A DNA stretch of 54,430 bases from Terriglobus albidus (GTDB lineage Bacteria; Acidobacteriota; Terriglobia; Terriglobales; Acidobacteriaceae): the NCBI RefSeq assembly GCF_025685425.1, contig NZ_JAGTAS010000030.1, forward strand, positions 1 through 54,430. The letters run 5' to 3'. The position numbers and the translations under genes are program-made. Under the pieces are notes generated by a model that worked only from the letters and a program-made list of their open reading frames with translations, was not told the origin of the DNA and ran no database searches. Below, in pieces: positions 1,318 through 33,787 of this stretch. Positions within the stretch are counted from its first letter, which is position 1, and each line of letters begins with the position of its first letter.

Positions 1318-2730
1318 ATGGCGTTGAGCCTCGAGAAGTTAGAAGCACTGGCGCCGGACCAGGCTTCACTGAATGCGGCACGCAAGCTGCTGAATCCGGT
1401 GCAGTGGCCGCTGCTGGCTACCGATGCACAAGGTCTCCTTTGGGGAGAGTGCCGGGGCTCCGGGGCGACTCCGTATCGAGTTGTCCTCTCCGAGTCGGAC
1501 GCCGGATACAAGTGCAGTTGCCCAAGCCGTAAGTTTCCCTGCAAGCATGCGCTTGCCCTGATCTGGATCCGCGCCGAAGGCAAGCTCACCTTCGCTCCGG
1601 CGGATGCACCGGATTGGGTCAAGGACTGGGTCTCGCGAAGGCGAGGCGGCGGCGCAAAGACATCGGCAGACGAGAACAAACCCAAGGCCTCCATCGCAGC
1701 CTCATCCGAGACAGCCGTAGCAGAGGTCGATCCCTTTGCTGAGGCGCGTGCCGCCGCGATCCGCGAGAAGAACCGCAGAGCACGCGAAGCCAGTATTCTC
1801 GCAGGCCTGGGCGAGCTCGACACCTGGCTCCTTGATCAGGTCGACCGTGGGATGGCCGCGTTCACAGGTCAATGCACCCAGGCCTGCAAGTTGATCGCGC
1901 AGCGCCTGGTTGACGCCAAGGCCCCCGCACTCGCAACCCGCATCGAAAACCTTCCCGCAACCCTGTTCGCTCTGCCTGAGACCATGCGTGAACTTGCCGC
2001 CGTGGAAGAGCTTGGCCAGCTTTACCTGATCGCCGAAGCGTACCGCCGTCAGAAGGCCCTGCCGCCGGAGTTGCGGATGGATATACGCCGTGCCGTCGGC
2101 TGGACAACCACACGCGAGGAGCTCCTCGCCGATACCACAGCCCCGCGTCTGCGTGCGCCGTGCCGCGTAATCGCGGTGATCACGGAAGTACAGCCCGATC
2201 GCCTGCGGAGGATCGAGACCTGGCTACGGTGCGAAGACAAAGACGCAGCTCCGAGCTTCGCCCTGTTGCTCGACTTTGTTCCTGTCGCCACAGGAGCCGC
2301 CGTCGGAGGCTTCAGCGTTGGCGACCGGTTCGAGGCTGAGCTTGTCTTCTATCCTTCAGCAACTCCGTTGCGGGCACTGATTGCAAACACATCGGGCGGG
2401 ACACAGATGAGCTCCAGCAAGCTCGACATCCCGGACACATCCATCGAAGCGGCCCTCGATGCCTACGAGATCATCCTTGGCGCACAGCCGTGGATCGGAT
2501 CGTGGCCAATCGCCTTTCGCAACGGCCGCGTCCGCCGTTCCGGCCATGCGTTATTCGTGACGCACCCGGATGGAGCTACGGCAACAGCGCTTCCACTGCG
2601 TTCCTCGCAGTGGGATGCGGCCACGCCTTTGACCGGGATTGAACAACTGGACGGCATTGGTCTGTGGGATGGACGCCGCTTCACCTTGTGTTGGGCGGAA
2701 ACGGAGCTGGGACGATGGATAAACGCCTGA
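1318..2730 (+). CDS. SWIM zinc finger protein (operon gene 1)
   Basis: A 470-residue protein. Near the N-terminus it has a SWIM-type zinc-binding motif, CxCx6CxH (C66, C68, C75, H77), preceded by the LWGECRGSG stretch typical of this subfamily. SWIM domains bind zinc and usually mediate DNA or protein contacts. The rest (residues ~110-470) is alpha/beta sequence I cannot assign to a domain. It is the first gene of a five-gene operon, and its end overlaps DUF5691 by 16 bp. No Shine-Dalgarno sequence is visible before the ATG. A TATGCT at 1305-1310 would start transcription almost at the ATG, so the message may be leaderless. The start agrees with where family homology should begin. Confidence 0.85.
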   Translation: MALSLEKLEALAPDQASLNAARKLLNPVQWPLLATDAQGLLWGECRGSGATPYRVVLSESDAGYKCSCPSRKFPCKHALALIWIRAEGKLTFAPADAPDWVKDWVSRRRGGGAKTSADENKPKASIAASSETAVAEVDPFAEARAAAIREKNRRAREASILAGLGELDTWLLDQVDRGMAAFTGQCTQACKLIAQRLVDAKAPALATRIENLPATLFALPETMRELAAVEELGQLYLIAEAYRRQKALPPELRMDIRRAVGWTTTREELLADTTAPRLRAPCRVIAVITEVQPDRLRRIETWLRCEDKDAAPSFALLLDFVPVATGAAVGGFSVGDRFEAELVFYPSATPLRALIANTSGGTQMSSSKLDIPDTSIEAALDAYEIILGAQPWIGSWPIAFRNGRVRRSGHALFVTHPDGATATALPLRSSQWDAATPLTGIEQLDGIGLWDGRRFTLCWAETELGRWINA

Positions 2731-4148
2731 CATCGGCTCTCTTGAAGTCCCGTGTTCTTCCGGCATTGCTCGCCGGTGCGAATCGGCGTTCCATGGAGCT
2801 CGATACGCTCTTCGGCGCTGATGCCGATCAGCCACACCTGCGGGCGCTGAGCCTTACCGGCCAGGCACTGCGATTCGAACGTCCCTCAGGACCGGAACAT
2901 TATCTTGTCGAGCCTGAGATCCGCGATGATCGCCGCATGATCCCTGACGAGATGCGCCGGCCTCTGATCCGCTTGCTGACATTCGCAAAGGCGACACCAC
3001 CGATCGCTGCAGCCATCGCCTGGGCCATGGACAAAGCTCAGCTCCGTCTGCACCCGTTCGACCAGCCGAAGCTCGATGCCTTTATCCGTGCAAACTCCGA
3101 GTATCTGGGACCGGCCGCGGAGCAGTGGGCGACACGACAGGCAGATACCTCAACCGCGCCCGCTTATTTCTTTGCAGAAGACGAGTTGGATGAGACTAAT
3201 TGGAGCACGGCACAGCTCCGTCGCAGAGTGCGTTTTGTCGAAGAGCGCCGAAGGCTCGATCCCGACGCGGCACGTGCTCTGCTGGAAGCAGCATGGCCAC
3301 AGCAGGATGCGGAAGCCCGCGTAAGACTGCTGATTGCGCTTCAGATCGGCCTCGGTCCTGCGGACGAAGCGTTTCTCGCATCGCTGACAAAGGACCGCTC
3401 ACCTCGCGTGCGCTCCATGGCGGCACAGCTTCTCGGCCGGTTGCCGAACTCCACCTATGAGAATCCGGCACTACGGCAGCTCATGGAGAGAATTCAACGT
3501 AGCGAGAGCGGCATCTTTCGCAAGAAGACCGTGCTCGCGCTGGAGCTTCCTGCAACCGTCAAGGAGCACATGGCTCCCGCGTGGATTCGAGAGGCCGTTG
3601 TATCCGTCAGCCTGCAGGAGTTTTCGCGCGCACTCAGCCTGACGAATGAAGAGCTGATTGCAGCAAGCGCCAAAGATCGCAACCTGCTGCTCGGCCTTGC
3701 CTGGATGGCAACACAGAGCCACCGTCTCGACCGATTGCCTGCCATCGCCGCCGAGCATCCAGAGTTATGGGAGCAGATGAGCTTGAGCGGCGCAGCTGAT
3801 CTTGAACATCTTTCGCCGGACGAACGCGTCGACTGGGCGACTGCGATCACCAGCCCGCAGTCATCGAAGCCGCCGAAGGAGATCATGCTGTGGAACTGGC
3901 TGCACAATGCGGTGAAGGGCGCTGTCCCGACAAAGCTAATGGAGGGTATGCTGCGCTCTCGCTGGACCGAGGATCTGACTGAGGCTGCAAAGGCCAGACC
4001 CGACCTGCCGGAGATGCTTGCCGCCTGCTGCCCTGCACCCTTGCGAACGAAACTACGCGAACAACTGGGAATGCTTGACCTGTCACTGACCGTCAATGCG
4101 TTCTCTTTGCTGGATATTCTGGACATGATGGAGAGGTTGGAACAATGA
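2715..4148 (+). CDS. DUF5691-like helical-repeat protein (operon gene 2)
   Basis: A protein of 477 residues if begun at 2715, where MDKRLTSALLKSRVLPALLAG resembles the start of DUF5691 proteins and a GGAG sits about 9 bases upstream. An in-frame ATG at 2664 lies deep inside the SWIM gene and is less likely. The middle (residues ~190-260) has HEAT-like helical repeats, for example VRLLIALQIGLGPADEAFL followed by SPRVRSMAAQLLGRLP. No catalytic motif is visible, so a scaffold or adaptor role is an inference. Its stop overlaps the start of the MoxR gene (ATGA), indicating translational coupling. The DUF assignment is from memory of the gene neighbourhood and sequence style. Confidence 0.75.
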   Translation: MDKRLTSALLKSRVLPALLAGANRRSMELDTLFGADADQPHLRALSLTGQALRFERPSGPEHYLVEPEIRDDRRMIPDEMRRPLIRLLTFAKATPPIAAAIAWAMDKAQLRLHPFDQPKLDAFIRANSEYLGPAAEQWATRQADTSTAPAYFFAEDELDETNWSTAQLRRRVRFVEERRRLDPDAARALLEAAWPQQDAEARVRLLIALQIGLGPADEAFLASLTKDRSPRVRSMAAQLLGRLPNSTYENPALRQLMERIQRSESGIFRKKTVLALELPATVKEHMAPAWIREAVVSVSLQEFSRALSLTNEELIAASAKDRNLLLGLAWMATQSHRLDRLPAIAAEHPELWEQMSLSGAADLEHLSPDERVDWATAITSPQSSKPPKEIMLWNWLHNAVKGAVPTKLMEGMLRSRWTEDLTEAAKARPDLPEMLAACCPAPLRTKLREQLGMLDLSLTVNAFSLLDILDMMERLEQ

Positions 4149-5227
4149 CTGACGAGAGACTGCGGCGCGGCGCCGAAGAGATCTATGCGGACGAACTCGA
4201 AGCATTGGCAGAAGCCGACACCCGCTCACGCCCGGAGAACTGGCGGCTCTCACCGCAGGCCGTGGTGACGTACCTGCTCGGTGGCAAGGCTGCTGACGGT
4301 ACCCCGATCTCTGCCAAGTATGTCGGCAACCGCCGTCTTATCGAAACAGCGGTGGCGACTCTGGCGACCGATCGGGCGCTGCTGTTGCTCGGACTTCCGG
4401 GAACGGCAAAGTCCTGGGTTTCGGAACATCTCGCCGCCGCCATCTCCGGCTCGTCGCAACGATTGATTCAATGCACTGCCGGCACCGATGAAAACCAGAT
4501 CCGCTATGGCTGGAATTACGCTCTCCTGCTTGCCAAGGGACCATCCATCGACGCTCTGGTCAAAACGCCGCTGACCCGTGCCATGGAAGAAGGCACCATC
4601 GTCCGCCTGGAAGAGCTGACGCGTATGGGCTCGGACGTGCAGGACACCCTCATCACCGTACTCTCCGAAAAGACACTGCCTATCCCCGAGTTGGATACAG
4701 CCATCGACGCACGTCGCGGCTTCAACGTCATTGCAACCGCCAACAACCGCGACAAGGGCGTCAACGATCTCTCCTCCGCGCTGAAGCGCCGCTTCAATGT
4801 TGTTGTGCTTCCCTCACCCGCAACGCTGGAAGAGGAGACCGGTATCGTGCTGAAGCGCGTGCAGGAGATCGGAACCTCCCTGAGCCTTCCGCCCATTAAA
4901 CCCGCGGATGAGGAGATCGTCCGCATCGTCACGCTCTTCCGCGAACTGCGTGAGGGCAAGACGTTGAATGGTAAGACCAAGCTGAAGACCTCCAGCGGAT
5001 CGCTCTCCACTGCTGAGGCCATCTCGGTTGGCGTGAGCGCCTGGGCATCAGCGGCACACTTCGGTGACGGTTCCATGGATGCGCAGAGCCTGGCGCCGAA
5101 CCTTGTCGGCGCCGTCATCAAAGATCCGGTACAGGACACCGTCGCGCTCGAGGAGTATCTCGAAAGCGTGGTGCGTACGCGTGACGGATGGAGCGACCTG
5201 TACAGCGCAATGCGGGAAGTGCTGTAG
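4145..5227 (+). CDS. MoxR-type AAA+ ATPase (operon gene 3)
   Basis: A 360-residue AAA+ ATPase. Walker A is GLPGTAKS (residues 83-90). The Walker B strand reads IVRLEELTR (152-160), with Glu-Glu where most AAA+ proteins have Asp-Glu. Sensor 1 is ATANNRD (198-203), and the Arg-finger region is LKRRFN (213-218). MoxR proteins are hexameric ATPases that work with VWA-domain partners as chaperones or maturases, as in RavA-ViaA and NorQ-NorD. The VWA partner here is operon gene 5. The start overlaps the DUF5691 stop, with GGAGAGG about 10 bases upstream. The substrate cannot be predicted. Confidence 0.9.
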   Translation: MTDERLRRGAEEIYADELEALAEADTRSRPENWRLSPQAVVTYLLGGKAADGTPISAKYVGNRRLIETAVATLATDRALLLLGLPGTAKSWVSEHLAAAISGSSQRLIQCTAGTDENQIRYGWNYALLLAKGPSIDALVKTPLTRAMEEGTIVRLEELTRMGSDVQDTLITVLSEKTLPIPELDTAIDARRGFNVIATANNRDKGVNDLSSALKRRFNVVVLPSPATLEEETGIVLKRVQEIGTSLSLPPIKPADEEIVRIVTLFRELREGKTLNGKTKLKTSSGSLSTAEAISVGVSAWASAAHFGDGSMDAQSLAPNLVGAVIKDPVQDTVALEEYLESVVRTRDGWSDLYSAMREVL

Positions 5228-5232
5228 CAGCT

Positions 5233-7467
5233 ATGGAAGATCGCGTTCATCTGCTGGGTATCCGGCATCACGGCCCTGGTTCCGCGGTTTTGCTGCGGCG
5301 GGCGCTCAATGCGATTGACCCGGCGTGTGTCCTGATCGAAGGCCCTCCCGAAGCAGACGACCTTGTCCGGTACGCCGCCGGTTCCGCAATGAAGCCTCCG
5401 GTCGCGTTGCTGCTGCATGCCAAGGATGATCCCAACCGCGCCATATTCATTCCGTTCGCGGAGTTCTCTCCCGAGTGGCAGGCCATGCGCTGGGCGCTCG
5501 ATCGCGAACGCCCGGTCCGCTTCATCGATTGGCCCGCGGGGGTGTCGCTGGCAGAGCCAAGGGAAGACGCCCGCAAAATCGAATACCGCGCCGATCCTCT
5601 CGATCAGCTCGCCGAGGCTGCCGGATACGACGATGGCGAAGCCTTCTGGGACTCGTTGATTGAACAAGCGGGCGGCTTGCAGGAGGCAGCCATCTCCACC
5701 TTCGCCGCCATTGCCAACGCGATGGCGATGATGCGTGAAGGGCAAGAGGGAGTACCGGAAGAAGAACGGCTGCGCGAAGTTCGGCGTGAAGCCTTCATGC
5801 GCCTGAACATTCGTGACGCGCTGAAGACCTGCGAAGGAAACATTGCGGTCGTATGCGGCGCCTGGCACGTAAGCGCCCTGCGCACTCCGGTCAAGCTCGC
5901 GGACGACAAGGCCGCCGTCAAGGACCTTCCCCGCGTCAAGGTGCAGGCCACGTGGGTTCCATGGACCGACAGCCGCTTGAGCACACGCTCGGGATACGGC
6001 GCAGGTGTCCTCTCTCCCGGCTGGTACCGGCATCTGTGGTCGCTGTATGCCGCGCCCCAACTCCCTCAGGTCGCGGAATTCGCCGCATCGTGGCAGGCAA
6101 AGACCGCGCTTGCTCTGCGCCAGGAGGGTTATCCCGCGCCCACGGCATCCGCCATCGAAGCTGCCCGGCTTGCCCTGAGCCTTGCCGCACTGCGTGGCCT
6201 TAGCCTGCCTGCCCTTGCTGAGATGCGCGATGCGTCTATCGCGACACTCTGCCACGGCGATACAACCGCCATGGCCTTGATCCATCAGAAGGTCTACGTC
6301 GGCGAACATGTCGGAGAGATTGGAGACGACGTTCCGCAGATGCCGCTGGCGCGCGATCTCGCACTCTGGCAAAAGCGGACCCGACTAAAACCGGAGGATA
6401 CCGAAACCGAAGCCCGGCTTGATCTTCGTTCCGAGGCAGGTCTGCTGAAGTCAACACTGTTACACCGGCTGGCGCTGATCAACGTACCCTGGGGCAAGTT
6501 GATTGAAGCAGGCGAGGGCCGCGGCACCTTTCGCGAGGTGTGGATGCTGCGCTGGGTGCCGGAGCTCTCCGTTGCGTTGGCGGAAGCACTGATCTATGGC
6601 GTCACCATTGAACAGGCAGCCGCTGCCTCCACGGTTGCCCGTGCGAAAGAGACAACCTCGGTAGCAGCCCTGACGGAACTGATTCGCGCAGCCCTGGTTG
6701 CCGATCTCTCCGATGCGGCCACCGAATGCATTGGCCTGCTGCAGGCAGCCGCGATTCAGACCAGCGACATCACCGATCTGTTGCGTGCGGTCGTGCCTCT
6801 GGTGCAGGTACTGCGATACGGTAGCGCCCGCAAGCTTCCCGAAGAGGCACTACGTTCCCTGATTCACTCCCTCTGCGTCGAGGTGAATGCAGGTTCGCGT
6901 ACCGGTTCACAAGCGCTGGATGAAGAGACCTCCAGGGCCCGCGTCCAGGCGATGCTTGCCTATGATCATGCGCTCACGCTCTTTGGCGACCGCAGCCTGA
7001 TCGACGCGTGGAGAATCGAACTGGGCCGCATGGTGAAGGACGAACAGGTCGCACCCGCGGTTGCGGGCGTGAGCCTGCGGCTGCTTCACGACACGCGGTC
7101 GTGGGATCTCGCTCCAGTCTCCGATGCCTTCTCGCAACAGATGAGCGGTGGCGATCCGAAACGCTCCGGCAACTTCCTCGAAGGCTTTCTCAGCAGCGGC
7201 CCCGAGGTGATGTTGCAGGATCAGCCGCTGCTGCACCTCATCGACGACTGGCTGTGTGCGCTGCACGAAGAGGACTTCGTTGAATCGCTTCCTTTGCTTC
7301 GCCGAAGCCTGTCTGCCTTTGACTCCGTGTCACGCCGTCGCCTGCTGGAGAAGGTCAAGGAAGGTAAGCGCGAGACCGTCGAAACCGAACAGCTTCCGGA
7401 CAATGACAATCCTGCCTTTCAGCAGGCACTGCCCTTGCTGCTGCAGATATTGGGGATGGAGTCATGA
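5233..7467 (+). CDS. DUF5682 protein, TIKI/EreA-like (operon gene 4)
   Basis: A protein of 744 residues from the ATG at 5233, 5 bases after the MoxR stop. An in-frame ATG at 5188 would overlap MoxR and adds an unconserved stretch. The N-terminal region reads HLLGIRHHGPGS (6-17), then LIEGPPEAD (34-42), and later VVCGAWHVSAL with H212. This spacing of GxRHHGxxS, an acidic EGPxE and a late GAxH recalls the EreA/ChaN/TraB/TIKI superfamily, whose members include metal-dependent hydrolases. That link is my inference. The C-terminal ~450 residues are mostly helical and unassigned. The stop overlaps the VWA start (ATGA). No signal peptide, so it is cytoplasmic. Confidence 0.8.
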   Translation: MEDRVHLLGIRHHGPGSAVLLRRALNAIDPACVLIEGPPEADDLVRYAAGSAMKPPVALLLHAKDDPNRAIFIPFAEFSPEWQAMRWALDRERPVRFIDWPAGVSLAEPREDARKIEYRADPLDQLAEAAGYDDGEAFWDSLIEQAGGLQEAAISTFAAIANAMAMMREGQEGVPEEERLREVRREAFMRLNIRDALKTCEGNIAVVCGAWHVSALRTPVKLADDKAAVKDLPRVKVQATWVPWTDSRLSTRSGYGAGVLSPGWYRHLWSLYAAPQLPQVAEFAASWQAKTALALRQEGYPAPTASAIEAARLALSLAALRGLSLPALAEMRDASIATLCHGDTTAMALIHQKVYVGEHVGEIGDDVPQMPLARDLALWQKRTRLKPEDTETEARLDLRSEAGLLKSTLLHRLALINVPWGKLIEAGEGRGTFREVWMLRWVPELSVALAEALIYGVTIEQAAAASTVARAKETTSVAALTELIRAALVADLSDAATECIGLLQAAAIQTSDITDLLRAVVPLVQVLRYGSARKLPEEALRSLIHSLCVEVNAGSRTGSQALDEETSRARVQAMLAYDHALTLFGDRSLIDAWRIELGRMVKDEQVAPAVAGVSLRLLHDTRSWDLAPVSDAFSQQMSGGDPKRSGNFLEGFLSSGPEVMLQDQPLLHLIDDWLCALHEEDFVESLPLLRRSLSAFDSVSRRRLLEKVKEGKRETVETEQLPDNDNPAFQQALPLLLQILGMES

Positions 7468-8621
7468 ACGAGCAACAGCGACTACGCCGCTGGCATCTTG
7501 CACTCGGAGACGATGAGAGCGATCTCGACGAACGCGATCGCCGGCTTAGTGCCGCCCTGTCGGCGTTGTACAACCCGACTCAATCAGGAAAACGAGCCGG
7601 CAGCCTGAGCGCATCATCGCCCCGCGTAGCGCGTTGGCTCGGAGACATCCGCGAGTTCTTCCCCACCAGCCTGGTACAGATCATCCAGAAAGACGCCTTT
7701 GAGCGGCTCAACCTTAAGGCATTGATGTTGGAGCCGGAGTTCCTTGCAACTCTCGAAGCCGACGTTCACCTGGTCGCCGATCTTATCTCACTCCGCTCCG
7801 CCATTCCGGAGAAGACACGTGAGACCGCACGCATGGTTGTGCAGAAGGTCGTCGACGATCTGCTACGCCGGCTGCAACATCGCACGCAGGAGACCTTACG
7901 CGGTGCGTTGAATCGTGCCCGGCGGACACGGCGGCCTCGCCATCGCGATATCGACTGGGGGAAGACCATCGGCGCCAATCTGCGTCACTATCAGCAGGAA
8001 CAACAGACGGTTGTTCCTGAGACGCTCATCGGCTACTCCCGCAGCACCAGGACGCAGGCCATGCTGGAGCATGTCGTCCTGTGTGTCGACCAGTCCGGAT
8101 CGATGGCCTCATCCGTGGTCTACTCATCGATCTTCGCCGCCGTCATGGCTTCGGTTCCCGGCATGTCGACAAAGCTCATCTGCTTTGACACTTCGGTGGT
8201 CGATTTGACGGAAGAGCTGCGCGACCCCGTGGAAGTTCTCTTCGGCGTGCAACTGGGGGGCGGCACTGACATCAATGCCGCGCTCGCATACTGCGAACAA
8301 AAGATCGAGCATCCCGCCAAAACCCATCTCGTGCTGATCACCGATCTCTTCGAAGGCGGGAACGCCAAGGCCATGATTGCTCGCGTCGCCGCACTGAAAC
8401 AAAGCGGCGTCAACGTCATCGTGCTGCTTGCACTCTCTGACGAAGGTCATCCTGGTTACGATGCCCGGCACGCGGAACAGATCGCTGCTATGGGCTGCCC
8501 CGTCTTTGCCTGTACTCCGGACAAGTTTCCCGACCTGATGGCGGCAGCACTGATGCGCCACGATATTCACCAATGGGCTGCAAGCCAGGAGATCGCCGTC
8601 GTGCGTGGGCAGGCCCAATAA
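7464..8621 (+). CDS. VWA-domain (CoxE-like) protein (operon gene 5)
   Basis: A 385-residue protein. The N-terminal half is helical and rich in Arg. The C-terminal half is a von Willebrand A domain with an intact MIDAS site: DxSxS at D209/S211/S213 (CVDQSGSMAS), the Thr of GGGTDINAAL, and the Asp of LITDLFEGG. Such proteins bind a divalent cation and partner with MoxR ATPases, the likely role here with gene 3. There is no signal peptide or membrane segment, so it should be cytoplasmic. It is the last gene of the operon, and a GC-rich stem-loop follows at 8634. Confidence 0.9.
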   Translation: MNEQQRLRRWHLALGDDESDLDERDRRLSAALSALYNPTQSGKRAGSLSASSPRVARWLGDIREFFPTSLVQIIQKDAFERLNLKALMLEPEFLATLEADVHLVADLISLRSAIPEKTRETARMVVQKVVDDLLRRLQHRTQETLRGALNRARRTRRPRHRDIDWGKTIGANLRHYQQEQQTVVPETLIGYSRSTRTQAMLEHVVLCVDQSGSMASSVVYSSIFAAVMASVPGMSTKLICFDTSVVDLTEELRDPVEVLFGVQLGGGTDINAALAYCEQKIEHPAKTHLVLITDLFEGGNAKAMIARVAALKQSGVNVIVLLALSDEGHPGYDARHAEQIAAMGCPVFACTPDKFPDLMAAALMRHDIHQWAASQEIAVVRGQAQ

Positions 8622-8633
8622 AACCCGGCGGAA

Positions 8634-8819
8634 GCGAGGCTCGCCCACCGCCGGGACCCTGGAGGCTAACCAAGGAACTTGTCTCTTCGCGGAGAAATTC
8701 TTCTGATCTCCACAATGAGACGAGGCCAGGAAAGAGAAAGACGCATTTTTTTGAGCTGCATCCTCCACTAATGGAGCAACCTGCATTGTTGCTCCATGCT
8801 TCGCGGTTTTATCGCGAAG
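8634..8819 (+). terminator. Stem-loops after the five-gene operon
   Basis: Three hairpins follow the VWA stop codon. CCCGGCGG pairs with CCGCCGGG (8634-8655) with a nested GCGAG/CTCGC. ATGGAGCAA pairs with TTGCTCCAT (8771-8797). CTTCGCG pairs with CGCGAAG (8799-8819). None has a downstream T-run on the plus strand, so rho-independent termination is not certain. The rest of 8622-8885 shows nothing coding. Confidence 0.4.
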
Positions 8820-11958: not shown

Positions 11959-12411
11959 CTAGTTCATGAAATGAGTCGGCATAGGATCGATTGGATAACT
12001 GCTATTTGCTGAAGACCAAAGAAAGCCAGCTGCATCCTCTACGAAACGGGCACGGACAGGATTGAGCTCAATGTAACGTTTCACCATTGCGAATTGCTCT
12101 GCATCGCGAATACGTGTTTCGTTATAACCCCGTTGCCATACCGCACCGCGATCTGGCAAGCGATGAGAAACGTTTCCTTTGATGTACTGAATGGCTTTCT
12201 CAAGTGCGATGTCTTTCGCGGGAGTGATGAGCAGATGAACATGGTTCGGCATGATGACAAACGCATGTAGGTTCAACCGACGAAGATCCCGTTGCTCCTG
12301 AAGCACGTCCAGGAAGAGATGGATATTCGATTCAGCCTGGAAGATGCGACGACGCTCTGCAGTTACAAATGTGACATGGAAAGTACGGACCTCTTGAGGC
12401 GCCACATGCAT
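11959..12411 (-). CDS. REP-associated tyrosine transposase (RAYT)
   Basis: A 150-residue protein of the Y1_Tnp/IS200-like HUH superfamily. The HUH site is HVH within VIMPNHVHLLI (H57, H59). Other RAYT hallmarks follow: YIKGN (76-80), VWQRGYNETRIRD (91-103), and YIELNPVRARFV (113-124). RAYTs are domesticated single-copy transposases that recognise and process REP hairpins. The gene is bracketed by REP blocks on both sides, the classical REP-transposase arrangement. Length and all motifs look intact, so it may be active on the surrounding repeats. Confidence 0.92.
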   Translation of the reverse strand: MHVAPQEVRTFHVTFVTAERRRIFQAESNIHLFLDVLQEQRDLRRLNLHAFVIMPNHVHLLITPAKDIALEKAIQYIKGNVSHRLPDRGAVWQRGYNETRIRDAEQFAMVKRYIELNPVRARFVEDAAGFLWSSANSSYPIDPMPTHFMN

Positions 12412-14681: not shown

Positions 14682-16154
14682 TCATTTCGAATCTCCATCC
14701 GCTGCCCAGAGATGTTGTGCGGCATAGGCCCTCCAGGGTCTCCACGTCTCGGCCCTGGTATGGAGTTGTTTCGCCGTCAGCACATCGCCCGTCACCTCTT
14801 CCGCTCCACGCAGCAGACCGACGTCCGACGATGGAAAAGCATCTACTTCCCGCAGAGCCCGGAGAGCGATGTACTGGGCCGTCCACTCACCAATTCCCGG
14901 AATAGTCTTCAGCGATGCGATGGCCTGGTCTATCGAACGTGCGGATTGAAAGATCTCAGGCGATTTCGCAGCAGCGCGCGTGACCGATCGCAATGTCTCA
15001 AGCCGGGCTGCCGGCATGCCGAGACCAAGCGATGGCGCCTTAGCGAGGTGCTTTGCGGAAGGAAAGGCATGGGTAAGCGCCGGATGCATACCGGCGCCGG
15101 ATGGCAGAGCCCTGCCGTGCAGCTCGACCAGTTTCCCGGCGAGACGCCTTGCTGCGGCGACACTCACCTGCTGCCCAAGGACTGCCCTGATCGCAAGCTC
15201 AAATCCATCCCATCCTCCCGGCGCTCGAAGACCCGGCCGGCGGGCAACAAACGGCGCAAGCTGCACATCGCGAGAAAGATGCTCATTGATGGTGGCGATA
15301 TCGACATTCAGATCGAACTGCCTGCGCACCCGATGCACAATCGCGGGCAGTGCTTTTACGTTGGGAAATTGAATCGTGACGCACAGGCTCTCGCGCTTCG
15401 GCAGATGCCTTACCGCAATCGCACCCAACTCACCATCAAGTTCGATAACACGGTGATAGACGCGATTGGCGACCACTTCTACACCAGCGATCGCGCGTGC
15501 TTCGAGAAAATGCAGCATCGCTTCCCAATCGTAAGGAGGCCGGTAGCGCAGCCGAAGCATCGTACCGGCGTCTGTTGCGATGACACTCGATCTGCGGCGC
15601 AGCGCGCTGGGGGGACGGTGAAAGAGATTCTGGAAGACCTCGTTGAACCGCCGCAGACTGTTGAAGCCGGAAGCCAATGCCACCTCCGTCATCGGTAGGT
15701 CCGTATCGTGAATCAGCTGCTTCGCAAACAACACACGGCGGGTCTGCGCGACGGCAATGGGCGACGCTCCGAGATGTTGCAGAAACAGCCGGCGCAACTG
15801 CCGCTCTCCTACACCAAGCCTCTCGGCCAGAGTGGCAACCGTCTGGGTTTCACCATCCAACGCCCCCTCTTCAATCAGGGCTAAGGCGCGCGAAACGGTG
15901 CTGCTGGTTCCTTTCCAGGATGCAAGCTGAGGCGCTGTCTCAGGACGGCAACGCAGACAGGGACGGTAGCCTGCCTCCTGCGCCGCCGCGGCTGAGCCAT
16001 AGAACGTGCAGTTCTCGAATTTTGGAGTACGCGCCGGGCAGACGGGCCGGCAGTAAATTCCAGTGGATTTGACGCCCACAAAGATCTGACCGTCGAACCG
16101 CGCGTCATGACTCTGCAGTGCCCTGTAAGCGACCGCTTTATCGGGGACAATCAT
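14682..16154 (-). CDS. Ada-AlkA fusion: alkylation-response activator and glycosylase
   Basis: A 490-residue multi-domain protein. Residues 1-80 are the Ada metal-binding methyl-acceptor domain, with the Cys set C35, C39, C66, C69 (GIYCRPVC and GYRPCLRC). Residues ~85-190 are an AraC-type DNA-binding domain. Residues ~200-490 are an AlkA glycosylase with helix-hairpin-helix IPGIGEWTAQYIALR and the catalytic Asp in FPSSDVGLL. It should sense methyl phosphotriesters, activate its own operon and excise alkylated bases. It leads an operon with ogt and mpg. This fusion is known in several phyla. Confidence 0.92.
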   Translation of the reverse strand: MIVPDKAVAYRALQSHDARFDGQIFVGVKSTGIYCRPVCPARTPKFENCTFYGSAAAAQEAGYRPCLRCRPETAPQLASWKGTSSTVSRALALIEEGALDGETQTVATLAERLGVGERQLRRLFLQHLGASPIAVAQTRRVLFAKQLIHDTDLPMTEVALASGFNSLRRFNEVFQNLFHRPPSALRRRSSVIATDAGTMLRLRYRPPYDWEAMLHFLEARAIAGVEVVANRVYHRVIELDGELGAIAVRHLPKRESLCVTIQFPNVKALPAIVHRVRRQFDLNVDIATINEHLSRDVQLAPFVARRPGLRAPGGWDGFELAIRAVLGQQVSVAAARRLAGKLVELHGRALPSGAGMHPALTHAFPSAKHLAKAPSLGLGMPAARLETLRSVTRAAAKSPEIFQSARSIDQAIASLKTIPGIGEWTAQYIALRALREVDAFPSSDVGLLRGAEEVTGDVLTAKQLHTRAETWRPWRAYAAQHLWAADGDSK

Positions 16155-20671: not shown

Positions 20672-23305
20672 ATGAGCTGGCGTCGCTTTTTCCGTCGCAA
20701 ACGTTCCGACTCCGAGTTGCAGCAGGAGATTCGCGCCTATGTCGAAGCCGAAACGGAAGAGAACGTCGCCCAGGGAATGCCTCCGGACGAGGCACGGCGC
20801 CGGGCTCATATCAAATTCGGCAATTCCCAGCGCATTCGCGAAAAGCTTTGGCAGCAGAACACTGTGGCTGCAATCGACCATCTCTGGCGCGATCTGACAT
20901 ATGCAGCCAGAACGCTAAAACGGACTCCTGGATTTACAACGATTGCTGTCCTCGTCATGGCTCTGGGTATCGGGGCCAATGTGGCGCTGTTTACCGTGGT
21001 GCGCCACGTTCTGCTCAATCCTCTGCCGTTTTCCAATCCGAACCAACTGGTTGCCCTGGATGAGCGCTCTCACTCGGGCAAGACAGACAGTGTGGCCGCC
21101 GGAGATTTCTACGACTGGCAGAGCGCATCCCATGGCTTTCAGCAGATGGCGATCTGGCGATGGAGTGGCTACAACATTTCGGGGGATCGCAACGAGCTTC
21201 CGGAGTTCCTTCCCGCAATGACATGCTCCTGGAACCTGTTCACCACTCTTGGTGTGCAACCAGCGGTAGGACGGCTGTTCGTCGCCGCGGACGATACCGA
21301 CCAGGGAGGCCTTACTGTTGTCCTTTCGTGGAATCTCTTCAAACGCCGCTTCAATGCGGACCCCTCGATCCTTGGAAAGACCATCCGGCTTAATACGTTC
21401 TCCTATACCGTCATCGGTGTACTTCCGCAGAGCTTCAGCTTTCCCGATCCGAAGGTCCAGTTGTGGATTCCCTATCACAAGGGAACTCCAAGCGTCATCC
21501 AGCATAGCCACTACAGCCATAGCGCTCACGTTCTTGCACGGCTCAAGCCTGGCTATTCCTCATCGCAGGCGGTTCAGGAAGTGCAGGCAATCCAAAAGGG
21601 CATCTTCACACGTTTCTCGGGCACGGGTCCGGTCAGCTCCGAGGTCGTCTCACAGCCACTGATCGACGACGTTGTCGGGGACACCAAGGCTCCGCTCTAT
21701 CTCCTGATGGCCGCCGTAAGCTGTCTTCTGCTCATCGCCTGCTTGAATCTGTCGAACCTGCTGGTTGCGCGGGCAGTCGCGCGCCGTAGAGAGATGGCGG
21801 TGCGATCGGCACTGGGTGGAAGCCGCATCCGCCTGATCTGCCAGCAGATTACGGAGTGCATCCTGATCTGCACCGCAGGCGGCATCCTCGGCATCGTGCT
21901 CGCGCATGAAGCTGTCCGCTGGCTGACGACCTACTGGCTCAATCTGCCACGTGCGGAAGCGATTCATATCGATGCGATCGTCCTCGCCTTCGCCCTTGGA
22001 GTGACTGCTTTCGCAGGAGCGGTGTCAGGAATTCTGCCGGCCCTGCTGTTCACGGATGCCAATGTCTCCACCGCACTGCAGGACAGCGCCAGAACAGCCG
22101 GCAGCTCCGCATCCAAAGCTTCGTTGCGCAAAGGACTCATGACGGTTGAGTTCGGAATCACCGTCGTTCTGCTGATCTGCGCCGGACTGCTGTTCAAAAG
22201 CTTCCTTCAGCTTGGCGCCGTCGATCTCGGCTGCACCACCCGCAACGTCCTCACTATGCGTTACTTTCTACGAGGGCAAACTTATTCCAAGCCGGATCAG
22301 GTGGTTTCATTCCAGCAACAGCTTCTCGACCGTGTCCGCAACCTGCCCGGTGTGGCCGCGGCCGGAATGACGAATGCAGTCCCAGGTGAGGGGCCGTACG
22401 GCGAGATGACCTTCACCATTCCCGAGCATCCGCCGCAGCCCCCCGAGAAGCATGATTCTGCCCTCTTCCGCACAGCCGATCCGGGCTATTTTCAGGCGCT
22501 GCAGATTCCGCTGCTCGCAGGCCGCTTCTTCACTTCGGCCGAACGGCTCAACAACAGCAGTTTCGTCATCATCAACCAGAAACTCGCGCATGAGTTCTTC
22601 CCCAATGAAGACCCTCTGGGAAAACATCTGGCTGTAAGCTGGCGCAGCCCCTCGGCTGAAAAGCTGGAGATCGTCGGCATCGTCGGCGATACCCGCCATC
22701 GGCTGAATGAGTCCGTCCAGAGCATGATGTGGTTCCCCATCCTTTCCGGAGCACCCGGCATCACTGCGGAGACAGCGCTTGTCGTACGATCCACCACCGA
22801 TCCGGCGCCGCTTTCCATTCCCATCCAGAAGGCCATCGCCTCTGTTGATCCAGACCTTCCCGTATCGAATGTCCTGACCATGCAGGAGGTACTCGGCCGA
22901 TCCATCGCCAATTCCAGCTTTGAGACCAGCCTGCTGGGAGCATTCGCCGCGCTCTCACTTCTGCTTGCCTCGATTGGATTATTTGGAGTGCTCTCTTACC
23001 TCGTCGCCCAGCGGACAAGCGAGATCGGCATCCGCATTGCCTTGGGTGCGCGGCGGGAACAGGTGCTTCGGCTGATCCTGACCGACGGTTTGCGACCGGC
23101 ACTGGTCGGCCTGGCGCTTGGACTCTGCATCAGCGCCGCTGTGACACGCAAAATCCAGTCGCAGCTTTACGGAACCCATCCCCTCGATCCAGTTGTTTTT
23201 GGTCTGGTTGCGATCGTACTTTTACTGGTCGCGGTGGCCGCCTGCACTGTTCCCGCATGGAGGGCTTCACGGCTTGATCCGATCAGAGCATTGCGAATTG
23301 AATAG
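20672..23305 (+). CDS. ABC transporter permease, ADOP family
   Basis: An 877-residue orphan permease. Residues 1-80 are the soluble helical ADOP N-terminal region (SELQQEIRAYVEAETEENV). Then come a first membrane helix (FTTIAVLVMALGIGANVALF), a MacB-type periplasmic domain, three helices near residues 340-470 (FtsX-like), a second periplasmic domain, and a C-terminal FtsX core (ASIGLFGVLSYLVAQRTSEIGIRIALG). ADOPs are two fused MacB-like halves without an adjacent ATPase and are expanded in Acidobacteriota. Substrates are unknown. GGAGG lies ~10 bases before the ATG. Unlike the 33784 copy, there is no PadR gene next to it. Confidence 0.92.
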   Translation: MSWRRFFRRKRSDSELQQEIRAYVEAETEENVAQGMPPDEARRRAHIKFGNSQRIREKLWQQNTVAAIDHLWRDLTYAARTLKRTPGFTTIAVLVMALGIGANVALFTVVRHVLLNPLPFSNPNQLVALDERSHSGKTDSVAAGDFYDWQSASHGFQQMAIWRWSGYNISGDRNELPEFLPAMTCSWNLFTTLGVQPAVGRLFVAADDTDQGGLTVVLSWNLFKRRFNADPSILGKTIRLNTFSYTVIGVLPQSFSFPDPKVQLWIPYHKGTPSVIQHSHYSHSAHVLARLKPGYSSSQAVQEVQAIQKGIFTRFSGTGPVSSEVVSQPLIDDVVGDTKAPLYLLMAAVSCLLLIACLNLSNLLVARAVARRREMAVRSALGGSRIRLICQQITECILICTAGGILGIVLAHEAVRWLTTYWLNLPRAEAIHIDAIVLAFALGVTAFAGAVSGILPALLFTDANVSTALQDSARTAGSSASKASLRKGLMTVEFGITVVLLICAGLLFKSFLQLGAVDLGCTTRNVLTMRYFLRGQTYSKPDQVVSFQQQLLDRVRNLPGVAAAGMTNAVPGEGPYGEMTFTIPEHPPQPPEKHDSALFRTADPGYFQALQIPLLAGRFFTSAERLNNSSFVIINQKLAHEFFPNEDPLGKHLAVSWRSPSAEKLEIVGIVGDTRHRLNESVQSMMWFPILSGAPGITAETALVVRSTTDPAPLSIPIQKAIASVDPDLPVSNVLTMQEVLGRSIANSSFETSLLGAFAALSLLLASIGLFGVLSYLVAQRTSEIGIRIALGARREQVLRLILTDGLRPALVGLALGLCISAAVTRKIQSQLYGTHPLDPVVFGLVAIVLLLVAVAACTVPAWRASRLDPIRALRIE

Positions 23306-29719: not shown

Positions 29720-32269
29720 TCACTCTGTACGAAGCGCTCGTATCGGATCGACCTTCGATGCCATCCTTGCCGGAATCACACTGGCGACAAGCGCACTCAG
29801 GATCAGAGCCGCGGATGCGAGCAGGAAGATCGCCGGGTCGTACCCACTTACCTGATAGAGCTGGGATTGCAGATAATATCCACTCAGCAATGCAAGCGGA
29901 GCTCCCAGCAGGAGACCGGCTGCGGTTTGCAGCAGAGCTCCGCGCAGGATCATCCCCATCACCTGGCCCCGGTCCGCGCCGAGAGCGATGCGGAGACCGA
30001 TCTCCGGGACTCTGCGCGCGACGGCATAGGCGGTGACTCCGTAGAGACCAATAGACGCAAGCAGCAGCGCCAGTCCGCCGAAGATGGCCGTCAGCCGGAC
30101 GACCAGTTGCCTCTGCGTAAAGGAGTTGCTGAGCTGATCCTGATAGGTCGTAATGCGGGGGATCGGAATCCCGGGATCGACCTCTTCGATGGCATGACGC
30201 ATGGCCGCCGCGGCAGCCGCAGGATCGCCGTTGTAGCGGACGATGATGTTGCCTGCGAAATGTTTGAACTCTGCCGCTTTATTCGATTGGTCAATGATGA
30301 CGGCGGAGTACGGTTCGTTATTGAAGGTCGTAGTCTGCGACATCGGGATGAAATACATGGGGTCGGGGCTCTTCGACGGATCTCCATACTTGGCGTCGTC
30401 GACCACACCCACGATCTCGTATTCCTGGGTCATATCCACGCCGGGACCGAAGTGCATGCCGAGCGCCGGAGCATCCTGCAGCACCCGGTGAACGAACTCG
30501 CGGTTCACGATCGCCACATGTCGGCTGCCGGCGTTGTCATGTTCCGTGAATGCTCTGCCCTGCAACAGCGGGGTGCCTATCGCCGTGAAGAAACGAGGAC
30601 TCACCAGGGTATAGCGGGCGGTCACCTCTCGCTCAGGATGCGGCCCGGCGACATTTACCCCCGTCGCCCATCCCATGAATGTCATCGGACCATAGGTCGC
30701 ATAGGCCATATCATGCAGCGTTGGAACCGCCGCGAAGCTTTGTTCGAGGTGGCGATAGAGTCCTTCGAGCTGCGGATAGGTGTATCCGGCGGCCGGGAGA
30801 TCGATGAAAGCAATCAGGCGGCCTGTCGTCTCGAAACGAAGATCCTGATGTTCAAGGCGCTGCAGACTGCGGAGGAACAGGCCCGCGATACTGAGCAGCG
30901 CCACCGAAAGCGCCGTTTGCAGGATGACGAGCGCGCGCTGCAACCCGCCAGAGTTGCCAGTGGCACGATTGGCCGCGCGAAGTGCATCCGCAGGATCCGC
31001 GTTGGAGGCGATGAAGGCAGGAGCGACGCCAAACAGGATGCCGGTCATCGCCGAAGCAATGATGGAGAATGCGAGCACCGGCCACGAAGGCAGCGGAGAG
31101 AGCGGCACGATGGACACACCGCGCATTGCCAGCGCCAGCATTCCCTTCACGCCCAGATAGGCCACGCCGATTCCCATCACTCCGCCCATCAGCGCAAGCA
31201 GCATGGCCTCGATCAGCATCTCCCGCACCAGGCGCACCCGCGAGGCGCCCAGGGCGGCGCGGACGCTCAGCTCCTGCCTGCGGGCCACGCCGCGAACCAG
31301 TATCAGATTGGCAAGATTCGCACAGGCGATCAGCAGCACGAAGGCCGCGGTCAACTGCAGCATCAGCAGGCTGCTCTCATAGCTGTCGCGCAGTTCGTTG
31401 ATGCCGTCGGAGGCTGGAGCGAGTTCTGTCGTCTCTCGCGCAATCTCCGCGACCGTGTGACCCGACCGGACATCCGGATTGGACATCAGCCATGCGGTCA
31501 ACCCGGCGCGAACGGCGCTCTCGACGATGGCTACGTTCCTCTTCTCGGGAATGCGCAGCATGATATGCAGCCATTGGCCCTTCGGTGCTTTGTAGAGCTT
31601 CCGGGTGGGATTGAAGATGGGTTCCTGCGCCATCGGAATCCAGACTCCCGGCGGGTCGCTCATATTCCGCTCGCCGAGAAAGTCCTTCTGCGCAATGCCG
31701 ACGATGGTGACCGGATGTCCGGTCATGATCACCGTGTCTCCGACGATGCCCGGATCGCCATGGAACTTCGACTTCCAGATCGCATAGCTGATGACGGCGG
31801 CAATGGGAGCGTCCTCGCGGTCATCGTCCGCGGTCAGCAACCTTCCGGCATAGGGAGTTACTCCAAGCACCTCGAAGTAGTTGCCTGCCACATGCCGGAT
31901 GTCGAGCGGTTGGGCGTCCGTGTCGCGCTGGCGATGCGCACTCACTTTGGCGGACCCCGCCTGCATGGCTGTCATTTCGGCCATGCTGCCGACTCGCTCG
32001 CGCATCGTCCGATAGATGTCGTAGGAGAAGATGCTCCAGTGTTTTTGATCTCCCCCGCCGATGCAGCATTCGATCTCCTTCCCGACCTTATACAGCTGCT
32101 CCGGATGCTGCACGGGCATTGCTTTAAGAATGACCTGATAGGCCAGCGTGAAGATCGCCGTTGTGGCACCGATGCCCAGCGCCAGAGTCAGCAGGGCTGT
32201 CGTCGTAAATCCGGGCGAACTCCTGAGTCTCCGCATTCCATGACGGACATCCGCAACCAGGTTGATCAT
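29720..32269 (-). CDS. ABC transporter permease, ADOP family (no N-terminal extension)
   Basis: A protein of ~849 residues from the ATG at 32269 (MINLVADVRHGMRRLRSSPGF), with GGAG 6 bases upstream; longer starts at 32281 and 32335 are possible. It enters directly into the first membrane helix (TTTALLTLALGIGATTAIF) and so lacks the ~80-residue soluble region seen in the other two ADOPs. Two MacB/FtsX halves are present, ending in LLASIGLYGVTAYAVARRVPEIGLRIALGADRGQV. No ATPase gene is nearby. The substrate is unknown. Confidence 0.9.
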   Translation of the reverse strand: MINLVADVRHGMRRLRSSPGFTTTALLTLALGIGATTAIFTLAYQVILKAMPVQHPEQLYKVGKEIECCIGGGDQKHWSIFSYDIYRTMRERVGSMAEMTAMQAGSAKVSAHRQRDTDAQPLDIRHVAGNYFEVLGVTPYAGRLLTADDDREDAPIAAVISYAIWKSKFHGDPGIVGDTVIMTGHPVTIVGIAQKDFLGERNMSDPPGVWIPMAQEPIFNPTRKLYKAPKGQWLHIMLRIPEKRNVAIVESAVRAGLTAWLMSNPDVRSGHTVAEIARETTELAPASDGINELRDSYESSLLMLQLTAAFVLLIACANLANLILVRGVARRQELSVRAALGASRVRLVREMLIEAMLLALMGGVMGIGVAYLGVKGMLALAMRGVSIVPLSPLPSWPVLAFSIIASAMTGILFGVAPAFIASNADPADALRAANRATGNSGGLQRALVILQTALSVALLSIAGLFLRSLQRLEHQDLRFETTGRLIAFIDLPAAGYTYPQLEGLYRHLEQSFAAVPTLHDMAYATYGPMTFMGWATGVNVAGPHPEREVTARYTLVSPRFFTAIGTPLLQGRAFTEHDNAGSRHVAIVNREFVHRVLQDAPALGMHFGPGVDMTQEYEIVGVVDDAKYGDPSKSPDPMYFIPMSQTTTFNNEPYSAVIIDQSNKAAEFKHFAGNIIVRYNGDPAAAAAAMRHAIEEVDPGIPIPRITTYQDQLSNSFTQRQLVVRLTAIFGGLALLLASIGLYGVTAYAVARRVPEIGLRIALGADRGQVMGMILRGALLQTAAGLLLGAPLALLSGYYLQSQLYQVSGYDPAIFLLASAALILSALVASVIPARMASKVDPIRALRTE

Positions 32270-32391
32270 CACGCTCTCCATTTGAAACCGAATCAGACTT
32301 TCCAGAAAGCGACAAGCAAGGAAGAGGCCATCCATTCAATCCGGAAAGGAGCCTGTTTGCCGATACCTGTGAGTACGAATCAATTCCCGGC

Positions 32392-33436: not shown

Positions 33437-33787
33437 ATGGCCGCCGACAAATCAGAAGTTCTTCAGGGAACCCTGGATCTCATGATCCTCAAGACGCTGC
33501 ACGCCCTGGGTCCGCTGCATGGCTTCGGCATTGCGCGGCGTATCGAGCAACTCAGCGAAGACGTCCTCACGCTCAACGAAGGAACGGTCTACACCTCTTT
33601 GCTCCGTCTGCAGCAGAAGAGCTGGATCGCAAGCGAATGGGGCGTCTCGGAAAACAACCGGCGCGCCCGCTTCTATCGGATCACCAAGCGAGGACTCAAG
33701 CAACTCGCCATCGAGACGGAGAACTGGGAGAGGATCTCCGGCGTTATCGGCCGCGTGCTCGCGCTTGAGGCGAAGGTCGAGCCATGA
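33437..33787 (+). CDS. PadR-family transcriptional regulator
   Basis: A protein of 116 residues from the ATG at 33437. The PadR winged helix reads VLQGTLDLMILKTLHALGPLHGFGIARRIEQLS, then LNEGTVYTSLLRLQQKSWIASEWG, then RRARFYRITKRGLKQLAIE. It overlaps the start of the following ADOP permease (ATGA), so the two are translationally coupled. In Acidobacteriota, PadR genes commonly sit directly before ADOP genes and presumably repress them. The ligand is unknown. Confidence 0.93.
   Translation: MAADKSEVLQGTLDLMILKTLHALGPLHGFGIARRIEQLSEDVLTLNEGTVYTSLLRLQQKSWIASEWGVSENNRRARFYRITKRGLKQLAIETENWERISGVIGRVLALEAKVEP

What the first reader, a model, noticed from the sequence alone, without database searches (positions are those of the whole stretch)
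1318..8621. Five-gene SWIM / DUF5691 / MoxR / DUF5682 / VWA operon: an uncharacterised ATPase-driven system
Five same-strand genes lie within 7.3 kb; three junctions overlap (16 bp, ATGA, ATGA) and one has a 5-base gap, so the products are made together. The sequence shows an AAA+ ATPase with Walker A and sensor 1, a VWA protein with an intact MIDAS, a zinc finger, a HEAT-like scaffold and a TIKI/EreA-like putative hydrolase. MoxR-VWA pairs are known chaperone or maturase modules. I know of no assigned function for this five-part version. My model: the ATPase and VWA protein remodel or gate the DUF5682 enzyme on a target chosen by the SWIM and helical-repeat proteins, perhaps in stress or conflict response.
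Basis: partly seen in the sequence, partly recalled or inferred. Interest (0 to 1): 0.72.

Follow-up and report, generated by a model that had tools for sequence, protein, structure and literature searches.

The report
Widespread five-gene ATP-driven hydrolase machine
These five neighbouring genes form a set that recurs together in many bacterial phyla and has a counterpart in E. coli; the parts look like an ATP-driven motor, a hydrolase and a sensor, but what the machine acts on is not known.

Summary
In detail: five same-strand genes (SWIM, DUF5691, MoxR, DUF5682, VWA) fill 1318-8621 with the stated overlaps. Of 80 DUF5682 loci examined, 71 carry all five families, with correlated divergence (r 0.76-0.91). 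New here: (1) MoxR, DUF5682 and VWA are homologues of E. coli YehL, YehM, YehP; E. coli and two plasmids show a second layout with a DUF4132 protein where DUF5691 would be expected. (2) DUF5682 has an N-terminal TIKI/TraB-like domain: profile match to TraB (probability 79%, 0 of 60 shuffles), fold matches, invariant His/Glu/Arg. (3) The SWIM protein models as a ZSWIM8-like SWIM domain plus two OB-like domains. (4) Fusions and split operons suggest a SWIM+DUF5691 arm and a MoxR+DUF5682+VWA arm. Best model: a YehL-type MoxR-VWA motor switches a TIKI-type hydrolase on a target chosen by the SWIM/HEAT arm. Catalysis, substrate and trigger are inferred. Defence is not favoured: no defence family in more than 3 of 122 neighbouring ORFs; yehM is in 5284 of 5426 E. 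coli genomes. My paper searches found no assigned function.

The parts
1318..2730 (+). SWIM zinc-finger protein (470 aa): SWIM domain, helical middle, two OB-like domains at the C-terminus
1474..1563 (+). SWIM zinc-binding motif; C66, C68, C75, H77 in 70 of 70 rows, window included
2116..2709 (+). predicted tandem OB-fold region (residues 267-464)
2715..4148 (+). DUF5691 protein (477 aa), HEAT-like helical scaffold; most diverged of the five
   Evidence: Pfam DUF5691 4.6e-27, HEAT_2 below cut-off; mean identity 24% over 70 loci
4145..5227 (+). MoxR AAA+ ATPase of the YehL kind (360 aa)
   Evidence: AAA_5 1.7e-36; 41% identical to E. coli YehL over 360 columns, 222 bits, against 26.6 bits for RavA
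4391..4414 (+). Walker A, GLPGTAKS
5233..7467 (+). DUF5682 protein (744 aa): N-terminal TIKI/TraB-like domain (about 1-225), C-terminal helical repeats (about 405-713)
   Evidence: Pfam 1.2e-204; model pLDDT 90.1, pTM 0.86; fold matches; profile match to TraB with controls
5257..5271 (+). GIRHH motif (G9-H13), TIKI-type GxxH
   Evidence: H12 84 of 84, G9 82 of 84 rows (whose numbering is one lower)
5338..5340 (+). E36 of VLIEGP, the strand-2 glutamate
   Evidence: 84 of 84 rows
5785..5799 (+). REAFM motif (R185-M189)
   Evidence: R, E and M 84 of 84 rows
5857..5868 (+). GAWH motif (G209-H212), second GxxH
   Evidence: G and H 84 of 84 rows
7464..8621 (+). VWA protein of the CoxE type (385 aa)
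   Evidence: VWA_CoxE 1.3e-55; 34% identical to E. coli YehP
8088..8102 (+). MIDAS motif DQSGS (D209-S213); T268 and D294 also conserved
   Evidence: D209, S211, S213, D294 in 76 of 76 rows; T268 in 74 of 76
8624..8655 (+). GC-rich hairpin just after the last gene; no T run, so a weak terminator candidate
   Evidence: 61-base stretch: z -2.06; 8 of 200 shuffles fold as well

Best explanation
One machine in two arms. Motor/enzyme arm: a YehL-type MoxR ring works with the VWA protein, which docks the DUF5682 enzyme through its MIDAS; ATP turnover switches DUF5682 between an inactive and an active or substrate-loaded state. DUF5682 is a hydrolase (peptidase or esterase) of the TIKI/TraB kind, its active site made by GxxH, Glu, RExxM and GxxH, carried on a helical-repeat platform. 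Sensor arm: the SWIM protein, with two OB-like domains, and the HEAT-like DUF5691 scaffold pick the target or trigger, possibly a nucleic acid or nucleoprotein. Shown: five-part conservation, correlated divergence, motif conservation, gene fusions and splits, an E. coli counterpart. Supported by prediction: TIKI/TraB-like N-domain, OB-like folds, ZSWIM8-like SWIM domain. Inferred only: catalysis, docking, switching, trigger and substrate.
Confidence: 0.42

Rival explanations
1. Cofactor or metal maturase: as with CoxD-CoxE or MoxR-MoxC/L, the ATPase and VWA protein help insert a metal or cofactor, with DUF5682 as insertase or as a ChaN-like haem/metal binder rather than a hydrolase.
For: VWA is of the CoxE family. 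MoxR-VWA pairs are known maturases (passages of PMC3893208 and PMC7159879). ChaN, solved with haem, is among the fold matches. A DUF4132 protein lies upstream of yehL in E. coli; DUF4132/MolR is tentatively linked to molybdate in the discussion of PMC8533742 (passage), which cites the original molR paper (not held).
Against: In 80 loci no neighbour family is shared by more than 11, and the ten representatives scanned include no metalloenzyme partner. Catalytic-type motifs are strictly kept. The same paper reports no change of molybdate genes on DdrO depletion.
Confidence: 0.2
2. Anti-invader (defence or conflict) system with a thresholding MoxR-VWA switch and DUF5682 as effector.
For: MoxR-VWA ternary conflict systems exist (PMC7159879 passages) and the window's MoxR matches Pfam bpMoxR (7.6e-8). 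Patchy in the window's phylum (over cut-off in 6 of 297 genomes). Hits in 31 records of the plasmid collection, several of them megabase-sized and probably chromosomes. One plasmid copy adjoins a type I restriction system.
Against: No PADLOC model fits any of the five proteins well (best E 0.0023). Among 122 neighbouring ORFs the commonest PADLOC family occurs in 3 (no control region scanned). E. coli DUF5682 is in 5284 of 5426 genomes. DUF5682 branches largely by phylum (16 label changes, shuffled mean 47.1). One viral-contig scan found no relative.
Confidence: 0.14
3. Genotoxic or RNA-stress response machine: the OB-containing SWIM protein recognises damaged or single-stranded nucleic acid and the machine removes or cleaves proteins bound there.
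For: OB matches are to SSB, PriB, RPA70 and HIN domains. In Deinococcus radiodurans a DUF4132 gene and a WGR gene are strongly upregulated on DdrO depletion (PMC8533742 passage), and DUF4132 is the partner protein of layout 2.
Against: The Deinococcus DUF4132 gene was not shown here to lie beside this module, and the same passage says those genes did not rise in irradiated delta-irrE cells. OB matches are weak. No DNA-repair family is among the 25 shown for 122 neighbours.
Confidence: 0.18

Closest known systems
E. coli K-12 yehI-yehK-yehL-yehM-yehP-yehQ
   Same: MoxR (YehL 41%), DUF5682 (YehM 27%) and VWA (YehP 34%) are homologous and in order M-D-V, with a SWIM protein beside them
   Different: SWIM gene last; DUF4132 protein (YehI) instead of DUF5691, which the Pfam control did not find in E. 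coli; YehQ shares only the SWIM motif with the window's protein
MoxR YehL subfamily (named in PMC3893208, passages read)
   Same: the window's ATPase is a full-length YehL relative
   Different: the passages read name the subfamily but give no five-part system or function
MoxR-VWA ternary conflict systems (PMC7159879, passages read)
   Same: MoxR + VWA core; bpMoxR match; P-loop with TAKS, as that paper describes for two of its systems
   Different: no VMAP, iSTAND, FtsH or beta-propeller partner found; the words SWIM, YehL, TIKI and DUF5682 do not occur in that text
TIKI superfamily (TraB, ChaN, Ere, HopBA1, RRSP)
   Same: N-domain of DUF5682: TraB profile match, ChaN and HopBA1 fold matches, GxxH / Glu / RExxM / GxxH motifs
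   Different: fused to a helical-repeat domain and tied to a MoxR-VWA motor; first Glu of the 2His/2Glu set absent; Ere comparison fails
RavA-ViaA
   Same: MoxR + VWA chaperone pair
   Different: ATPase similarity to RavA only 26.6 bits; no SWIM, DUF5691 or DUF5682 beside ravA in the 6 kb shown

Membership tests
MoxR AAA+ ATPase, YehL subfamily | Full-length similarity to YehL, clearly above the other MoxR protein of E. coli | tested here: met
   222 bits over 360 columns against 26.6 bits for RavA; the other subfamilies were not compared
MoxR AAA+ ATPase, YehL subfamily | Walker A, Walker B glutamate, sensor 1 Asn, arginine finger | tested here: met
   G83/P85/G86/T87/K89, E156/E157, N200, R215/R216 in 78 of 78 rows; roles assigned from recall
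CoxE-type VWA protein | VWA_CoxE domain with MIDAS | tested here: met
   1.3e-55; MIDAS D209/S211/S213/D294 76 of 76 rows
TIKI superfamily | Parallel beta-sheet core with helices, superposable on members | tested here: inconclusive
TIKI superfamily | Profile similarity to known members | tested here: met
   TraB probability 79%, score 46.1, 0 of 60 shuffles; ChaN 22.4, 0 of 60 but close to the shuffle maximum 20.4; Ere 18.4, 7 of 60
TIKI superfamily | 2His/2Glu active site | tested here: inconclusive
   both His and the strand-2 Glu in 84 of 84 rows; first Glu absent, as in the TraB row shown, GTxH
TIKI superfamily | Hydrolase activity | not testable with these tools
   needs an assay
MoxR-VWA ternary conflict system | Third component VMAP, iSTAND, FtsH or beta-propeller | tested here: not met
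   the other three proteins match SWIM, DUF5691 and DUF5682
MoxR-VWA ternary conflict system | Variable effector domains | tested here: inconclusive
   same five families in 71 of 80 loci and no recurrent extra gene, but the VWA proteins of the loci were not scanned for added domains
Anti-phage defence system (PADLOC) | Match to a described component | tested here: not met
   best E 0.0023 over five proteins
SWIM zinc finger protein | CxC...CxH motif | tested here: met
   70 of 70 rows; Pfam above cut-off
OB-fold nucleic-acid-binding protein | OB fold and nucleic-acid binding | tested here: inconclusive

The most novel reading that the evidence does not exclude
A previously unrecognised class of ATP-driven protein- or ester-hydrolysing machine: a MoxR-VWA motor coupled to a TIKI/TraB-type hydrolase instead of a protease chamber, and aimed by a nucleic-acid-sensing SWIM-OB protein on a HEAT scaffold, conserved across bacterial phyla and present in E. 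coli as YehL-YehM-YehP-YehQ.
Probability: 0.2. Interest if true: 0.85.

Novelty: new variant of a known kind. Interest (0 to 1): 0.6.

Why it matters
MoxR-VWA pairs are widespread but few have a known client. This one has a fixed set of partners, one of them a probable hydrolase with a readable active site, and a counterpart in E. coli K-12. So the role of an unassigned MoxR subfamily (YehL) and of two Pfam unknowns (DUF5682, DUF5691) can be tested with deletions and single-residue changes in a laboratory strain.

Tried and rejected
Defence-island reading: PADLOC on the five proteins and on 122 neighbouring ORFs, Pfam on the same 122. The most shared neighbour clusters are generic (ABC ATPase, 11 of 80 loci; short-chain dehydrogenase, 8 of 80). 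The 122 are a random draw, at most 900 aa each, from 502 ORFs of at least 150 aa within 5 kb; many ORFs in GC-rich genomes are spurious, only the top 25 of 63 (PADLOC) and 98 (Pfam) families were shown, and no control region was scanned, so this is weak evidence of absence.

Sequence route to TIKI: Pfam on 64 DUF5682 members gave no TIKI family; PDB sequence search gave no useful hit for the SWIM or DUF5682 profile. The first profile comparison used wrong ORFs for two of five TraB, one of seven ChaN and two of six distant ChaN loci; it was redone with the right ORFs: TraB rose from 33.1 to 46.1, ChaN fell from 24.9 to 22.4, Ere stayed at 18.4 and failed, the distant ChaN set gave 20.0. In the same test known members compare with each other at 19.3 (TraB-Ere) to 147.8.

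YehQ and the Agrobacterium SWIM protein against the S profile: only the SWIM motif region aligns. The top Foldseek row for DUF5682 is ZSWIM8 (E 6e-3, TM 0.19): read as generic helical repeats and not used.

Counter-examples: G063 has MoxR and DUF5682 on one strand, a VWA on the other, and no S or DUF5691 in 20 kb (L018), nor DUF5691 in the genome at E <= 0.001. Three divergent DUF5682 copies (L020-L022) lie outside the layout. Incomplete among the 80: L034, L039, L045, L051, L072, L074, L091, L098, L100. Contig ends can explain L091 and L098 fully and the upstream side of L034 and L045; these two cyanobacterial loci lack VWA although about 10 kb of downstream DNA was held, and L039, L051, L072, L074, L100 lack genes within held DNA, so the module is not always kept together.

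Rows dropped: structure alignment A2 holds the window and 63 of 80 loci; A3 the window and 69. In the one phage paper opened, 'Yehl' is an author name.
Full report
WHAT IS THERE. Five genes on the + strand fill 1318-8621: SWIM protein (S), DUF5691 (H), MoxR ATPase (M), DUF5682 (D), VWA (V). Pfam confirms each. A divergent TIGR03435 gene lies before them and a convergent MocR-type regulator after. A GC-rich hairpin follows the last stop but lacks a T run. The genome gave one match to DUF5682 and one to DUF5691. The nearest named relative with the same layout is Granulicella rosea (L025); its contig length (534176) equals that of G202's contig, and G202 is listed in the window's own family, so I infer Acidobacteriaceae.

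IT IS A MODULE. A scan of the genome collection with a DUF5682 alignment gave 594 pattern matches (limit reached), 585 confirmed, best 80 kept. With profiles built from the window's proteins, 71 of 80 loci hold all five families. By ORF starts 64 read S-H-M-D-V; of the other seven, four have S and H turned away from M-D-V, two have S and H as one ORF, and one (L078) has overlapping over-extended ORFs; 67 of 71 are on one strand. Loci with all five come from Acidobacteriota, Pseudomonadota, Bacteroidota, Cyanobacteriota, Actinomycetota, Chloroflexota, Planctomycetota, Verrucomicrobiota, Armatimonadota and others. Over 70 loci the pairwise distances of the five families correlate at r 0.76-0.91 against at most 0.155 in 500 shuffles per pair; shared species history alone can give much of this. 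Mean identities are M 67%, V 59%, D 44%, S 35%, H 24%. The D tree (quick method) groups largely by phylum (16 changes, shuffled mean 47.1), but the window's clade sits with Rhizobium, Methylosinus and Asaia, and Rhizobium plasmids carry D at about 57% identity, so transfer occurs. In 297 genomes of the window's phylum D is over the cut-off in 6 and H in 7; of the 5 with full-length D, 4 also have a strong H match. Nine of the 80 loci are incomplete, and seven of these cannot be put down wholly to contig ends (and see Tried and rejected).

TWO ARMS. S and H are a single ORF in Phytohabitans (949 aa) and in a planctomycete (994 aa). In four Streptomycetaceae loci S and H sit together on the strand opposite to M-D-V. 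An acidobacterial ORF of 1224 aa joins a divergent D (envelope 35-811) to a VWA domain (857-1224). This suggests an S+H arm and an M+D+V arm.

E. COLI HAS A COUNTERPART. E. coli K-12 yehL, yehM, yehP encode homologues of M (41%), D (27%) and V (34%) in the same order, followed by the SWIM protein YehQ and preceded, after yehK, by the DUF4132 protein YehI. The ATPase is far closer to YehL than to RavA (222 against 26.6 bits). The Pfam control did not find DUF5691 in E. coli. Plasmid copies in Agrobacterium vitis (M-D-DUF4132-V-SWIM) and Iodobacter (DUF4132-DUF4132-M-D-V-SWIM) show the same second layout, while Deinococcus taeanensis has the first, with a small extra gene between M and D. A DUF4132 gene with HEAT repeats also follows V in Niastella (L050), and two relatives of it occur in L065 and L085. 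Inference: DUF4132 takes the place of DUF5691 as scaffold. YehQ aligns with the S family only at the SWIM motif. yehM matches in 5284 of 5426 E. coli genomes, 5166 with at least 80% coverage.

MECHANISM AND RIVALS. Best model and three rivals are in their sections. The motor motifs (P-loop, E156/E157, N200, R215/R216) are invariant in 78 of 78 rows and the MIDAS D209/S211/S213/D294 in 76 of 76. Against defence: no recurrent defence neighbour in the sample, near-core in E. coli, no relative in one viral-contig scan, and one hit in the phage collection, an unverified faecal contig without annotation.

LITERATURE. No held paper contains DUF5682 or DUF5691; none holds both 'SWIM zinc finger' and MoxR; six papers hold at least two of the yeh names, seen as a listing only, two of them about E. 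coli or Shigella genomes; YehL with MoxR occurs in 4 papers, of which I read passages of PMC3893208, which names YehL as a subfamily. The conflict-systems paper PMC7159879 does not contain SWIM, YehL, TIKI or DUF5682. The original subfamily review and the molR paper were not seen. Most subscription journals are not held, so a published function cannot be excluded.

Noticed in passing
L022:7896-19088: An acidobacterial MoxR-DUF5682 pair (YehM-like) is followed by two large TPR-CHAT proteins (1107 and 1256 aa), unlike the five-gene layout.
   Followed up: no
L020:8786-12457: DUF5682 and VWA domain in one 1224-aa ORF, downstream of a MoxR gene; both active-site His and the Glu are kept.
   Followed up: partly
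L050:13453-16404 and relatives in L065, L085: DUF4132 + HEAT protein directly downstream of the five genes in Niastella, linking the two layouts; the relatives in L065 and L085 were found by BLAST clustering only.
   Followed up: partly
L015:7411-10270: E. coli K-12 yehH, a relative of yehI by sequence, is annotated as a pseudogene beside intact yehI.
   Followed up: no
L134:1336-19340: On a mobilizable Iodobacter plasmid the second layout lies among transposases and beside a type I restriction system.
   Followed up: no
PMC6881287 and PMC9334617 (passages): A deuterium-adapted E. coli K-12 strain has a base change between yehK and yehL, and a transposon sits in the metG/DUF4132/yeh region in an E. 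coli ST131 branch, so the region can be altered without loss of viability.
   Followed up: no
L034, L045, L051 (cyanobacteria): DUF5682 without a VWA gene found beside it although downstream DNA is held, suggesting scattered parts in some cyanobacteria.
   Followed up: no
window 20672-23305, 29720-32335, 33784-36495: Three separate MacB/FtsX-type permeases in one window, on both strands.
   Followed up: no
window 11959-12411 (-): Small ORF that reads like a REP-associated (Y1-type) transposase; identification recalled from its sequence, not scanned.
   Followed up: no
window 14682-16154 (-): Ada-type metal-binding domain joined to HTH and AlkA N-domain, an alkylation-repair fusion.
   Followed up: no
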